From assembly GCA_010030205.1 (NCBI GenBank), contig RGQD01000012.1:1-34911 (forward strand): DNA of 34,911 bases, given 5' to 3'. The notes beneath the pieces were generated by a model. The model was not told where the DNA came from. It did not search any database and saw nothing but the letters and a program-made list of their open reading frames with translations. Positions 7,063 through 26,215 of this stretch are shown piece after piece (positions within the stretch are counted from its first letter, which is position 1; every line of letters begins with the position of its first letter). This DNA comes from Betaproteobacteria bacterium (GTDB lineage: Bacteria; Pseudomonadota; Gammaproteobacteria; Burkholderiales; Burkholderiaceae_C). Made by a program: the position numbers and the translations under genes.

Positions 7063-7824
7063 ATGAGCGACAAGATACTGGTCGAAAAAAACGGTCCAGT
7101 CACCACGTTGATCATCAACCGCCCGCAAGCGCGTAACGCGCTGGACCGTGAGGCGTCGCTGCTGCTGGCTGATGCCATCCGCGCCTTCGAGGCCGACCCG
7201 CTGGCCCGGGTGGCGGTGCTCACCGGCGCGCAGGGAAACTTCTGCGCCGGCGCCGACCTCAAGGAACTGGCGTCGGGCGTCGACTATGTGCCCTGGGCGG
7301 GCAGCGCGCAGGGCCCACTGCACCGTGCCGCAAGCAAACCGGTGATCGCAGCGGTGGCAGGTCATGCCTGCGCGGGCGGTCTGGGTGTGGCCTTGTGGTG
7401 TGACCTGCGGGTGGCCGAAAAGAGCGCGTCGTTCGCGGTGCTCTCGCGCCGCTGGGGCGTGCCAATGAGCGACGGGACCACGGTGAGGCTGCCGCGCATC
7501 ATCGGCCAGGGCCGGGCGCTTGACATGCTGCTGACAGCGCGCAGCATCGGCGGCGAGGAAGCCGAGCGCATCGGCCTGGCCAATCTCGTGGTGGCTGATG
7601 GCACGGCACTCGCCGAGGCGCAGGCGCTGGCGCTGCGGATCGCGCAGTTCCCGGAGCTTGCGATGCGCACCGACCGGCAGTCGGCCTACGAGCAGGCCGA
7701 CCTGCCGATCGGCGAGGCGATCGCGCGCGAACTGGAACTGGCCACCGAGGCGCGCCAGGCTCAGGCCGTGTCGGGCGCCGCGCGCTTTGCCTCCGGCGCC
7801 GGCCGTCACGGCAAGGTGGGCTGA
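7063..7824 (+). CDS. Enoyl-CoA hydratase/isomerase (crotonase family)
   Basis: MSDKILVEKNGPVTTLIINRPQARNALDREAS..., GAQGNFCAGADLKEL oxyanion-hole motif, AVAGHACAGGLGVALWCDLRVAEKSASFAVLSRRWGVP. Confidence 0.93.
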   Translation: MSDKILVEKNGPVTTLIINRPQARNALDREASLLLADAIRAFEADPLARVAVLTGAQGNFCAGADLKELASGVDYVPWAGSAQGPLHRAASKPVIAAVAGHACAGGLGVALWCDLRVAEKSASFAVLSRRWGVPMSDGTTVRLPRIIGQGRALDMLLTARSIGGEEAERIGLANLVVADGTALAEAQALALRIAQFPELAMRTDRQSAYEQADLPIGEAIARELELATEARQAQAVSGAARFASGAGRHGKVG

Positions 7825-7887
7825 TGCGCGCGGGCACCTGCCGCGAGTTCGGCTGATGCGCGCGGTGGTCTGCCGAGAGTTCGGCGA
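7824..7887 (+). repeat. Imperfect 32-bp tandem duplication spanning the oxidoreductase start; first copy is a 10-codon ORF
   Basis: ATGCGCGCGGGCACCTGCCGCGAGTTCGGCTG (7824-7855) versus ATGCGCGCGGTGGTCTGCCGAGAGTTCGGCGA (7856-7887). First copy encodes MRAGTCREFG* (7824-7856); second starts MRAVVCREFGDP. Confidence 0.9.
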
Positions 7888-8893
7888 TCCGGCTTCGGTC
7901 CGGGTCGAGAATCTTCCCGAACCGGTCGCCGATGGTGAGCGCGTGCGCATCGCGGTCTGCGCCAGCGGGCTGAGCTTCGCCAATCTGCTGGCACTGCAAG
8001 GCCGACACCAGAACCGCGCCGAACTCCCTTTTACGCCGGGCACTGACGTGAGCGGTGTGGTCGTCGAGTGCGGCCCTGACGTCACGCGATTTCGCCCCGG
8101 TGACCGTGTGGCGGCGGCCCTGCGCCGGGACGGCTTCGCCGAGCAGGTGGTCGTCCCGCAGCGCACCGTATGGGTATTGCCCGACACGATAGACCACGAC
8201 GCTGCGGTCCAGTTCCCGGTGATGTACGGCACGGCCTACGCGGCGCTCGCCTGGCGGGCGCGTGTGCAGCCGGGCGAAACCGTTCTGGTGCACGGCGCGG
8301 CGGGCGGCAGTGGCATGGCTGCGGTTCAGGTGGCCCGGTGCCTGGGTGCGCGCGTGGTGGCCATCGTCGGCTCAGCGGACAAAGCACAGGCCTGCTCGAA
8401 GCTTGGCGCCGATCTCGTGGTCAACCACCGCGAGACATCATTTCGCGACGCTGTGCTGGCGTTCACCGACGGGCGCGGCGCAGACGTGGTGTTCGACCCC
8501 GTGGGCGGCGACACGTTCATGGAGTCCACCCGTTGCATTGCGCCGGATGGGCGTCTGGTGGTGGTGGGCTTCGCCGGCGGAACCATCGCGCAGTTGGCGA
8601 CCAACATCGCGCTGGTCAAGAATTTCGACGTGATCGGTCTCTACTGGGGCCAATACCTGAACTGGGGCCGGGTCCCTTCGCATCCGCACGACGAGACGCG
8701 AGTACGTGAAGCGATGAACACGATGTTCGGATGGCATGCGCAGGGACGGCTACAGCCGTGGCTTCATGCTCGCCACCGGCTGGATGACTTCGCCGCGGCG
8801 CTGGCAGCGCTGGCCGCGCGTGAGGCCGTCGGTCGCGTGGTGCTCAACCCCTTCACCGAGGCCAACATCCGGCGACATTGGAATCTTCTGTGA
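7856..8893 (+). CDS. Zinc-independent MDR family NADPH:quinone oxidoreductase
   Basis: MRAVVCREFGDPASVRVENLPEPVADGERVRI..., GETVLVHGAAGGSGMAAVQVARCLGARVVAIVGSADK NADP-binding motif, GRGADVVFDPVGGD. Confidence 0.92.
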   Translation: MRAVVCREFGDPASVRVENLPEPVADGERVRIAVCASGLSFANLLALQGRHQNRAELPFTPGTDVSGVVVECGPDVTRFRPGDRVAAALRRDGFAEQVVVPQRTVWVLPDTIDHDAAVQFPVMYGTAYAALAWRARVQPGETVLVHGAAGGSGMAAVQVARCLGARVVAIVGSADKAQACSKLGADLVVNHRETSFRDAVLAFTDGRGADVVFDPVGGDTFMESTRCIAPDGRLVVVGFAGGTIAQLATNIALVKNFDVIGLYWGQYLNWGRVPSHPHDETRVREAMNTMFGWHAQGRLQPWLHARHRLDDFAAALAALAAREAVGRVVLNPFTEANIRRHWNLL

Positions 8894-8939: not shown

Positions 8940-10040
8940 ATGAAGACGCAAGACGCAGTGAACGCAGGAAACGCAGAAAACGCGGGAAACGCGATAAACA
9001 GGACAAACGCGACAAACGCGACCGGCGCGCCAAGCGGCATGAATTCAGCGGTTGGGACGGGGGCGAGAATTCAAAGACGGCGCGTCACGTTCGCGCTGGC
9101 CGGCACGGCACTGGCCGGCATCCTCGGTCCTGGCAGTGCCCGGGCCGAGTACCCCGAACAGGCGATCAAGCTGGTGATTCCGTATCCGCCGGGCACCGGC
9201 ACCGACGTGCTGGCGCGATTCATCGGCCGGAAGCTGGAAGAGCGTCTGGGCAAACCGGTGGTACCCGAGCAGCGCGTGGGCAGCAGCGGCATGATCGCGG
9301 CGCAGGCTGTGATCGGTGCGCCAGCCGACGGCCATACGCTGTTCTTCGTGGCCAACGCGCCGGTGGCCACCAACGTGGCGCTGTTCCAGAAGCTTGCGTA
9401 CGACCCGGTGAAGGATCTGGCCCCAGTGGCTCGTCTGGCGCTGGGCTCATTCGGTCTGCTGGTGCCCGCAGCGTCGAAGTACAGGACCGCGCAGGAACTG
9501 ATGGCAGCCGCCGCAGCCAACCCGGGCAAACTGAGTTACGGCGCCGGCAGCGCGACCTACCAGATCGCCACCGAGTGGCTGCTGTCGCTGGCGTCGGCAC
9601 GCGCCAACCACGTGCCGTACAAGGGCGCTGCACCGGTGCTCACGGACCTGGCCGGGGGGCATATCGACTTCGCGCTGGCCGAGTACGGCGGCGCGCAAGC
9701 CTTCATCCGCGCGGGCAAGCTGCGGCTGCTCGCCGTCACGGCCGACCGCAGGCTGGCCGCCGAGCCGAACGTGCCGACGATGATCGAGAGCGGATACCCG
9801 GATTACGCGCCGGTGGCCTGGTGGGCGGTTTTCGTCGCGGCGCGTGTGCCCCAGCCCGTCATCGACAGGCTCGAGCGCACGCTGCTCGACATCATGGCCA
9901 CCGACGAAGCGCAGCAGTTCCTCGCGCGCAACAATCTGGTCGCGTTTCCGGCCGACGCGAAGACCTTGCGCCGTTATCAACTGGACGACATCGAGCGCGA
10001 AACCCGGGTGATCGAGGCGGCCAAGATACCAAGGCAGTAA
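8940..10040 (+). CDS. Bug/TctC-family tripartite tricarboxylate transporter substrate-binding protein
   Basis: ATG at 8940 preceded by AGGGGG SD (8930-8935); RRRVTFALAGTALAGILGPGSARA signal, YPEQAIKLVIPYPPGTGTDVLARFIGRKLEERLGKPVVPEQRVGSSGMIAA, NHVPYKGAAPVLTDLAGGHIDF. Confidence 0.93.
   Translation: MKTQDAVNAGNAENAGNAINRTNATNATGAPSGMNSAVGTGARIQRRRVTFALAGTALAGILGPGSARAEYPEQAIKLVIPYPPGTGTDVLARFIGRKLEERLGKPVVPEQRVGSSGMIAAQAVIGAPADGHTLFFVANAPVATNVALFQKLAYDPVKDLAPVARLALGSFGLLVPAASKYRTAQELMAAAAANPGKLSYGAGSATYQIATEWLLSLASARANHVPYKGAAPVLTDLAGGHIDFALAEYGGAQAFIRAGKLRLLAVTADRRLAAEPNVPTMIESGYPDYAPVAWWAVFVAARVPQPVIDRLERTLLDIMATDEAQQFLARNNLVAFPADAKTLRRYQLDDIERETRVIEAAKIPRQ
8961..9023 (+). repeat. 7 x 9-bp degenerate tandem repeat AAC-GCR-NNN encoding Asn-Ala-X units
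   Basis: aacgcagga|aacgcagaa|aacgcggga|aacgcgata|aacaggaca|aacgcgaca|aacgcgacc translating NAG NAE NAG NAI NRT NAT NAT. Confidence 0.92.
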
Positions 10041-23981: not shown

Positions 23982-24103
23982 CGCAACCCGGCTCATTCAA
24001 AAAGATTTTCATCGCCAACCGCGGTGAGGTGGCGGTACGAATCGCGCGCGCCGCCGCGATGCTGGGGATCCGCTCGGTCGCAGCATTTTCTCGCGACGAT
24101 TAA
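23978..24103 (+). pseudogene. Truncated biotin carboxylase N-terminus (41 codons)
   Basis: ATG overlapping the CoA-transferase stop (ATGA): MTQPGSFKKIFIANRGEVAVRIARAAAMLGIRSVAAFSRDD* = canonical BC N-terminus (KxxIANRGEIAxRI), then TAA 24101-24103. Confidence 0.88.
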
Positions 24104-24137
24104 GTTGTTGCATCCGGCTTTGTTCGACGTCGGTTCA

Positions 24138-25988
24138 ATGACGCCAAATGCTGACGCACCGTTAGTTGATAAGGCAGTGGTGGGACCAGAGGGTGCCGTT
24201 GTCGTTGTCGCGCCCATGGGTGGCCGATTGGTGAGGTGGGCGGTCGAAGCGGGCGAAGCTGTCCGGATCGGCCAGGTCATGGCAGTGATCGAATCGATGA
24301 AGATGGAGCATCAGGTCCTTGCGCTAGAGTCCGGTCGAGTGATTGAATTGCTCGTCGACAGCGGTGATGCTGTCGTGGCGGGACAGGCCTTGCTTTTTTT
24401 GCAGCCCGGAGAGTTTGGCGAGATGACCGGCGATGTCTTTGCCGTCTCTGATGGCCTTGCGAACAACCAAGAACCAGATGAACTGCGCGAGCGCAAGGCC
24501 GCCTTGCTGGATGCGCAACGTCCTGAGGCATTCGCGCGCCAGCGCTCACGTGCTGCACTCACGGCAGGTGAGCGTATCGCCCGGCTCTGCGATGTGGGGA
24601 GCTTTGTCGAACTCGGCGGGTTGGTGCAAACGGAGAATGCAGCGTTCGCTCCGGCCGACGGACTGGTGATGGGTTCGGCGCGAATCGACGGCCGGCCTGT
24701 GATGGTACTGTCGCAGGACTTCACAGTGTTCGGCGGCAGTTCGGGGCCGATTGGCAAGGCCAAGATGTTGCTCGCACTCGGGCGCTGCCGCACCAACGGC
24801 ATACCCTTGGTGATGATGCTCGATGGTGGTGGGCACCGGATTCAGGATGGCCAAAACTCACGCTACTACGCTTGGGCCAACCCGGTGTTTCAGGAGTTCG
24901 CGCGACTGTCTGGTTGGGTGCCGGTGGTCGCGGCAGTGCTGGGAATGGGCTATGCGGCCAACACCAATTTTTGCGCGATGGCCGACCACGTGACCATGGT
25001 GCGAGGTCTGTCGGAGATGGGCCTGGCCGGTCCAGCCTTGGTCAAGGCTGGCACCGGCGAACAGATCACGGGCCAGCGGCTAGGGGGCGCCGATATCCAG
25101 GTGGACAGGTATGGGATGGCCGACCTGGGCGTTGGCTCGGAGGATGAAGCCTTCGCCGCGATCTGCCGCTTTCTGTCATTCCTGCCATCCAACGCTGGAC
25201 TGCCTACGCCGCGCACGAACTTCGAGGCTGGCGATACCGAAGTGCTGAACCGGTTGGTGCCTTCAAGTTCGCGTCAGACCTATGACACGCGACGGGTGAT
25301 TGAGCACATCGCTGATGCCGGCAGCCTGTTTGAGATCAAACCCACCTACGGCGCGAACTTGGTCACTTGCCTGGCTCGCATGGGTGGCCAGTCGGTAGGT
25401 TTCATTGCAAACCAGCCACTGGTCAAAGCCGGCATGATCGACAGTGCTGCTTCGGAGAAGGGTGCGCATTTCATCGCCTTGTGCGATGCCTACGGCTTGC
25501 CACTCATCTACCTGATCGATGTCCCCGGCGTCTCGATCGGCTCTGAGGCCGAGCGCACTGTGCTCGGGCGACGCAGTGCCAAGTTGCTGTTTGAACTGGG
25601 GCACGCCACCGTGCCGCGCATGTCGGTCGTCATCCGCAAGGGCTATGGTCTGGGCTACGTTGCCATGTGTGGCGGCAGAGGCTTCGAGCCGGATGCCTGC
25701 GTGGCATGGCCCACGGCGGAAATCTGTGCGATGTCGATTGAGGGCTCGGTGGATGTGGCCTACCGCAAAAAGTTCCAAGATGCCCCGCATCCGGCGGCTC
25801 GGCGCCAGGAAATCATCGATGAAATCCGTTCTCGGGTCAGTGCGCTCCAGGCTGCCGAAGGCTTCGGCATCGATGATGTCATTGAGCCCTCGCAGACGCG
25901 CGCCTACCTGCTCAATGTGCTGGCCCAAGCACCACCTCGCAGGCAATCCAGCATGCCCGCGAAGTGGCGATCCATCTCGCCCATCTGA
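24138..25988 (+). CDS. BCCP-carboxyltransferase fusion (acyl-CoA carboxylase lacking its BC domain)
   Basis: ATG at 24138 in frame with ORF 24024-25988; VVVVAPMGGRLVRWAVEAGEAVRIGQVMAVIESMKMEHQVLALESGRV biotinyl domain (Lys codon 24300-24302); CT: MVLSQDFTVFGGSSGPIGKAKMLLALGRCRTNGIPLVMMLDGGGHRIQDGQ, LIDVPGVSIGSEAE, IRKGYGLGYVAMCGG. Confidence 0.9.
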   Translation: MTPNADAPLVDKAVVGPEGAVVVVAPMGGRLVRWAVEAGEAVRIGQVMAVIESMKMEHQVLALESGRVIELLVDSGDAVVAGQALLFLQPGEFGEMTGDVFAVSDGLANNQEPDELRERKAALLDAQRPEAFARQRSRAALTAGERIARLCDVGSFVELGGLVQTENAAFAPADGLVMGSARIDGRPVMVLSQDFTVFGGSSGPIGKAKMLLALGRCRTNGIPLVMMLDGGGHRIQDGQNSRYYAWANPVFQEFARLSGWVPVVAAVLGMGYAANTNFCAMADHVTMVRGLSEMGLAGPALVKAGTGEQITGQRLGGADIQVDRYGMADLGVGSEDEAFAAICRFLSFLPSNAGLPTPRTNFEAGDTEVLNRLVPSSSRQTYDTRRVIEHIADAGSLFEIKPTYGANLVTCLARMGGQSVGFIANQPLVKAGMIDSAASEKGAHFIALCDAYGLPLIYLIDVPGVSIGSEAERTVLGRRSAKLLFELGHATVPRMSVVIRKGYGLGYVAMCGGRGFEPDACVAWPTAEICAMSIEGSVDVAYRKKFQDAPHPAARRQEIIDEIRSRVSALQAAEGFGIDDVIEPSQTRAYLLNVLAQAPPRRQSSMPAKWRSISPI

Positions 25989-26215
25989 AAATATCATGAA
26001 CACGACGACGAGCAAGCTGACGACTTTTCAGCACGGTTTTTTCGAGCTATGTCGATCCAGTCCACCCGGACAAGCCACTCGAATCGATCGCATCGTGATT
26101 GCTGATGTGTTCGTGAGGTGATGAAGTCACTGCAGTGATGCAGCATTACAAGTTCGAAAAGGTGAGTGGTACTGCTGCCAGCCTGCCGGATGAACCCTGT
26201 TCTAACCTGGAGACA

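What the first reader, a model, noticed from the sequence alone, without database searches (positions are those of the whole stretch)
7824..7887. Tandem duplication of a gene start creates a 10-codon minigene with TGATG coupling on both sides
Seen: enoyl-CoA hydratase stop overlaps ATG of MRAGTCREFG* (cTGATGcgcgcg, 7822-), whose own TGA overlaps the ATG of the oxidoreductase MRAVVCREFGDP (gcTGATGcgcgcg, 7854-). The two 32-bp units differ at only 5 of the first 30 bases. The duplication is out of frame (32 = 3n+2), so the first copy became a leader minigene relaying termination-reinitiation. This could tune translation of the oxidoreductase or be a very recent replication-slippage event.
Basis: seen in the sequence. 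Interest (0 to 1): 0.6.

Follow-up and report, generated by a model that had tools for sequence, protein, structure and literature searches.

The report
Duplicated gene start makes relay minigene
A 32-base copy of the start of one metabolic gene lies just in front of it and forms a 10-codon mini-gene that probably hands ribosomes from the upstream gene to the downstream one; it is real and shared by two related bacteria, but it uses well-known translation mechanics.

Summary
ECH (7063-7824) ends in TGATG with a 10-codon ORF (MRAGTCREFG*, 7824-7856), which itself ends in TGATG with an MDR oxidoreductase (7856-8893). The two 32-bp units match at 25 of 30 bases and are the strongest tandem repeat in the window. 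A different genome of the same genus (L002, dS about 0.1) carries the same structure, so it is not an assembly error and not very recent. In 12 related ECH-MDR pairs without the duplication, stop and start overlap in 11 (6 TGATG, 5 ATGA) and lie 2 nt apart in one. The first ATG sits near the usual junction position; the duplication left the true MDR start 31 nt beyond the ECH stop and without its ribosome-binding site. Published reporter work shows that gaps of about 20 nt nearly abolish coupling, while very short upstream ORFs suffice. The likeliest reading is a relay minigene that keeps MDR coupled to ECH: a passive by-product of a 3n+2 duplication of a TGATG start. No evidence of tuning or selection was found: the predicted hairpin has a z-score near 0, and the peptide differs between the two genomes. 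The closest known analogue is MIRU insertion in mycobacteria. Modest interest.

The parts
7063..7824 (+). Enoyl-CoA hydratase/isomerase (ECH), 253 aa, ending GRHGKVG*
   Evidence: Pfam PF00378 E=5.5e-41; orthologues share the GRHG tail
7813..7818 (+). Shine-Dalgarno-like AAGGTG inside the ECH 3' end, spaced for the ATG at 7824
   Evidence: anti-SD duplex -8.3 kcal/mol, beyond the strongest 5% of local 20-mers
7819..7885 (+). Imperfect tandem duplication, period 32 bp, 2.1 copies, with GGC at each unit boundary
   Evidence: Tandem Repeats Finder score 99; shuffles
7824..7856 (+). 10-codon minigene MRAGTCREFG*, copy 1 of the duplicated MDR start; TGATG overlaps at both ends
   Evidence: sequence; repeat; present in L002 as MRAGTCCEFG*
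7856..8893 (+). MDR-family (zinc-type alcohol dehydrogenase/quinone oxidoreductase-like) protein, 345 aa; copy 2 is its true N-terminus (MRAVVCREFG)
   Evidence: Pfam PF00107 and PF08240; M[RK]AVVC-type N-terminus in orthologues

Best explanation
A 32-bp stretch from the ECH/MDR overlap into codon 10 of MDR was copied in tandem. The true MDR start was thereby separated from the ECH stop and from its ribosome-binding site. Because the unit is 3n+2 bases long and ends in TG just before an ATG, copy 1 automatically forms a short ORF whose stop (TGA) overlaps the MDR ATG. Ribosomes that finish ECH most likely reinitiate at 7824, translate 10 codons, terminate at 7854-7856 and reinitiate at 7856, so MDR stays coupled to ECH through a relay minigene. 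The arrangement was probably kept because it is nearly neutral for MDR expression, not because the peptide has a function. Shown: the sequence, the duplication, its presence in two genomes, and the overlapping junctions of orthologues. Inferred: the relay itself and its near-neutrality.
For: Overlap geometry at both ends. Same structure in L002, with the 32-bp length, both ATGs and both TGAs kept. Of 12 orthologous ECH-MDR junctions without the duplication, 6 are TGATG, 5 are ATGA and 1 is +2 nt. In four orthologues (L038, L041, L042, L044) the MDR ATG lies 8 nt after the ECH GRHG codons; copy 1 lies 11 nt after them and copy 2 43 nt after them. The ribosome-binding sequence now serves copy 1 (-8.3 kcal/mol); copy 2 has almost none (-2.5, weaker than the local median of -3.7). 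Published reporter work: gaps of about 20 nt almost abolish coupling, and the last 15 nt of the upstream gene are enough for reinitiation in E. coli (PMC10666635).
Against: No expression data. Reinitiation without a good Shine-Dalgarno sequence is often much reduced: in E. coli, SD removal reduced or abolished it in 4 of 5 tested pairs (PMC6728339), so MDR expression may have dropped. In the 15-nt experiment the short piece was fused to a long translated reporter, so it does not prove that a 10-codon ORF suffices. The peptide differs (R versus C) between the two genomes. The sister sequence L003 and L051-L054 have 11-residue ECH tails and a 35-nt GRHG-to-ATG distance, so the history may be more complex than a single tandem duplication.
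Confidence: 0.66

Rival explanations
1. Inert scar: the duplication is real but the minigene is barely used; MDR is translated by independent initiation at 7856 or at reduced level.
For: Only one codon differs between the two minigenes and it is nonsynonymous; structures are no more stable than shuffles. Tandem repeats of similar size occur elsewhere in the sampled genome.
Against: Both overlaps and the 3n+2 length are kept in two genomes at dS about 0.1, although one changed base in 32 is little evidence; the 7856 start has almost no Shine-Dalgarno sequence.
Confidence: 0.23
2. Regulatory minigene: translation of the 10 codons, or a hairpin in which CACCT of copy 1 pairs with the AGGTG ribosome-binding sequence, sets the ECH:MDR ratio.
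For: The four adjacent bases that distinguish copy 1 from copy 2 create CACCT, complementary to AGGTG; predicted unpaired probability around that site is 0.12-0.27 in both genomes.
Against: Folding z-scores are -0.01 and +0.32, no better than shuffles. Site accessibility in orthologues overlaps this range.
Confidence: 0.08
3. Assembly error or chance similarity.
For: The source genome is a fragmented assembly: 906 contigs, 6.9% contamination.
Against: A separately deposited, clearly different genome has the same structure; shuffles never reach the similarity.
Confidence: 0.02

Closest known systems
Termination-reinitiation coupling at TGATG/ATGA gene overlaps (PMC6728339, PMC10666635)
   Same: Stop and start codons share bases; downstream translation is expected to depend on upstream termination at the same place.
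   Different: Here one ordinary overlap has become two in series, with a 10-codon ORF between.
MIRU insertion at start codons in mycobacteria (described in PMC12548453)
   Same: A short inserted ORF overlaps the downstream start, so insertion is thought to have little effect on the downstream gene.
   Different: MIRUs are dispersed, apparently mobile repeats with -4 nt spacing; here the inserted ORF is a copy of the downstream gene's own start, with -1 spacing, at a single locus.
Synthetic leader-ORF designs (PMC13255528; also mentioned in PMC12548453)
   Same: A short nonsense ORF delivers ribosomes to the next start.
   Different: Those leader ORFs carry a strong ribosome-binding site next to their stop; copy 1 does not.
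axe-txe two-codon minigene (PMC8708949)
   Same: A natural minigene affecting translation of the next cistron in cis.
   Different: Two codons, not made by duplication; proposed to act through mRNA stability.

Membership tests
Termination-reinitiation coupled gene pair | Stop and start overlap by -1 or -4 nt | tested here: met
   TGATG at 7822-7826 and 7854-7858
Termination-reinitiation coupled gene pair | Overlap conserved between orthologues | tested here: met
   11 of 12 orthologous ECH-MDR junctions overlap, the other is +2 nt
Termination-reinitiation coupled gene pair | Shine-Dalgarno motif in the upstream gene's 3' region | tested here: inconclusive
   Present before 7824 (-8.3 kcal/mol), nearly absent before 7856 (-2.5)
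Termination-reinitiation coupled gene pair | Downstream translation lost when the upstream ORF is stopped early | not testable with these tools
   needs a two-reporter experiment
MIRU-like mobile start-codon insertion | Same element at several loci in the genome | tested here: not met
   DNA search of own genome found one place only; the repeat pattern occurs once in G000 and in none of the other sampled genomes of the order
Short-homology tandem duplication (replication slippage) | Short direct repeat at the unit boundaries | tested here: inconclusive
   GGC at 7819, 7851 and 7883, but a 3-bp match is weak evidence and the ECH tail length of relatives leaves the event unresolved

The most novel reading that the evidence does not exclude
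Duplication of a TGATG gene start by 3n+2 bases is a general self-buffering mutation: in one of three lengths it builds its own relay ORF, so such duplications can persist in coupled operons and become natural leader cistrons that change the ratio of two enzymes.
Probability: 0.2. Interest if true: 0.45.

Novelty: new variant of a known kind. Interest (0 to 1): 0.24.

Why it matters
It is a natural example of how a coupled gene pair may tolerate an insertion: the inserted piece brings its own start and stop and relays ribosomes. With orthologues that lack the duplication available, it gives a clean pair for testing how far reinitiation can be chained and whether a relay lowers downstream expression.

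Tried and rejected
Decayed copy of the same duplication in L003: its tail aligns to copy 1 no better than shuffles (p=0.85), so a shared origin is not supported. Chance repeat: rejected. Special RNA hairpin: z-scores near 0. Other TGATG-minigene-TGATG places: three more mechanical ones in 333 kb, none a repeat; the one in the window at 26121 lies beyond the end of the 24024-25988 ORF and is not a gene junction. Further carriers: a pattern search of 399 genomes of the order found only this genome; a protein search of 369 genomes of the class added no orthologue at E<=1e-100. The plasmid search gave only 60-80% partial matches. Copy 1's GGGCACCTG block has no other source in the window. One script ended by time limit because of a loop error and was rerun.

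Full report
What is there. ECH (7063-7824) ends GRHGKVG* and its TGA shares the A of an ATG at 7824. That ATG opens a 10-codon ORF, MRAGTCREFG*, whose TGA (7854-7856) shares its A with the ATG of an MDR-type oxidoreductase (7856-8893, MRAVVCREFG...). Pfam identifies ECH_1 and the ADH_N/ADH_zinc_N domains. Tandem Repeats Finder reports 7819-7885, period 32, 2.1 copies, score 99, the highest in the window. The general repeat finder did not list it at the settings used. Identity is 25 of 30, and 20,000 shuffles reached at most 21. The five differences are four adjacent bases plus one synonymous base. In L002 copy 2 has CGC at that synonymous position, as copy 1 of the window does, so this difference probably arose in the window lineage after the split, and the older divergence is the four-base block.

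Is it real and how old. A scan of one genome per species found L002 (98% protein identity), a different genome of the same genus (G001), with the same structure: 32 bp, both TGATG overlaps, peptide MRAGTCCEFG*. Window and L002 differ at 20 of 762 bases in ECH, 41 of 1038 in MDR and 1 of 32 in the unit; dS is 0.083 and 0.126. Two separate assemblies with this divergence make an assembly error very unlikely and make the event older than the split of these two lineages, so it is not very recent. In the genus sample (21 genomes) only these two have a close MDR orthologue. No other genome of the order sample has the duplicated pattern.

What the junction looks like without the duplication. The ECH-MDR pair is conserved in other genomes of the same order and in the family of L003. 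Of 12 pairs without the duplication, six are TGATG (L003, L051-L055), five ATGA (L038, L041, L042, L044, L058) and one has the start 2 nt after the stop (L057). In L038, L041, L042 and L044 the MDR ATG is 8 nt after the GRHG codons. Copy 1 of the window is 11 nt after GRHG, copy 2 is 43 nt after it. L055 has GRHGKVGGS* and then TGATGCGCGCGGTCGTCTGCCACGAG, close to what the window would look like with one copy. Nearly all these proteins begin M[RK]AVVC, so copy 2 is the real N-terminus and copy 1 is the free one. The MDR tree places L003 as sister of window+L002 (100/99), then L040 and L051-L054.

An unresolved point of history. L003 and L051-L054 have 11-residue tails after GRHG and 35 nt to the ATG. 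By parsimony the ancestor of this group may have had the long tail too, in which case the window lineage either lost about 24 nt before gaining 32, or replaced the tail with the copy in one event. The L003 tail does not resemble copy 1 beyond chance (p=0.85). The block of four adjacent differences would also fit an imprecise copying event. The GGC triplets at 7819, 7851 and 7883 would fit slippage, but three bases are weak evidence.

How it most likely works. The ribosome-binding sequence at the ECH end (AAGGTG, 7813-7818) pairs with the anti-Shine-Dalgarno at -8.3 kcal/mol and is well spaced for 7824. Upstream of 7856 the best pairing is -2.5, weaker than the local median of -3.7. Without the minigene, ribosomes leaving ECH would face a 31-nt gap to the MDR start. 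In reporter tests on six native pairs of E. coli and Haloferax, gaps of about 20 nt nearly abolished coupling, and the last 15 nt of the upstream gene sufficed for reinitiation in E. coli (PMC10666635). SD removal reduced or abolished reinitiation in four of five E. coli pairs (PMC6728339). So the double overlap should preserve coupling, possibly with lower efficiency at the second step. A simple arithmetic point (inference): when a start of the form TG-ATG is duplicated, only unit lengths of 3n+2 put the second TGA in frame with the first ATG; 3n would give an N-terminal extension and 3n+1 a run-through. The relay therefore arises by itself in about one third of such duplications.

What is not supported. 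There is no evidence of selection on the peptide: its only change between the genomes alters an amino acid. A hairpin pairing AGGTG with CACCT of copy 1 is predicted in both genomes, but z-scores are -0.01 and +0.32 and site accessibility is within the range of orthologues without the duplication. Regulation therefore remains a possibility only.

How unusual. In 733 kb of this genome and two relatives, no other start duplication with its own short ORF was found, apart from a 14-bp TTG match. Tandem repeats of 20-60 bp at 80% identity occur at about half a dozen places in 333 kb, so duplication itself is ordinary and the position is what is rare.

Comparison. It works like ordinary termination-reinitiation coupling, doubled. 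The closest natural parallel is the MIRU of mycobacteria, which inserts at start codons so that its internal ORF couples to the gene (PMC12548453). It is not a MIRU: it is single-copy in its genome and derives from the downstream gene itself. The idea that a short ORF delivers ribosomes to the next gene is already described in that review and exploited synthetically (PMC13255528).

Noticed in passing
window 8940-9022 (start of the TctC-type receptor gene, 8940-10040): AACGC-type 9/18-bp tandem repeats at the N-terminus of the receptor; the window is 45 bp (15 codons, in frame) longer here than L002, so there is a second repeat-length change at a gene start in the same neighbourhood.
   Followed up: partly
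L051, L052, L054 from position 1501 (oriented): In these orthologues the MDR ORF is 683 aa; Pfam on L051 and L054 shows an alpha/beta hydrolase domain fused behind the MDR domains, while L053 has a stand-alone MDR of 340 aa.
   Followed up: partly
window 7063-8893 and genus search: The ECH-MDR pair is patchy: close orthologues in 2 of 21 genomes of the genus but also in other families, which suggests horizontal transfer or repeated loss.
   Followed up: no
L002 record title: The MAG with the same duplication is named Bordetella parapertussis in its public title, while the window's own kin are unnamed; the label may be a loose automatic assignment.
   Followed up: no
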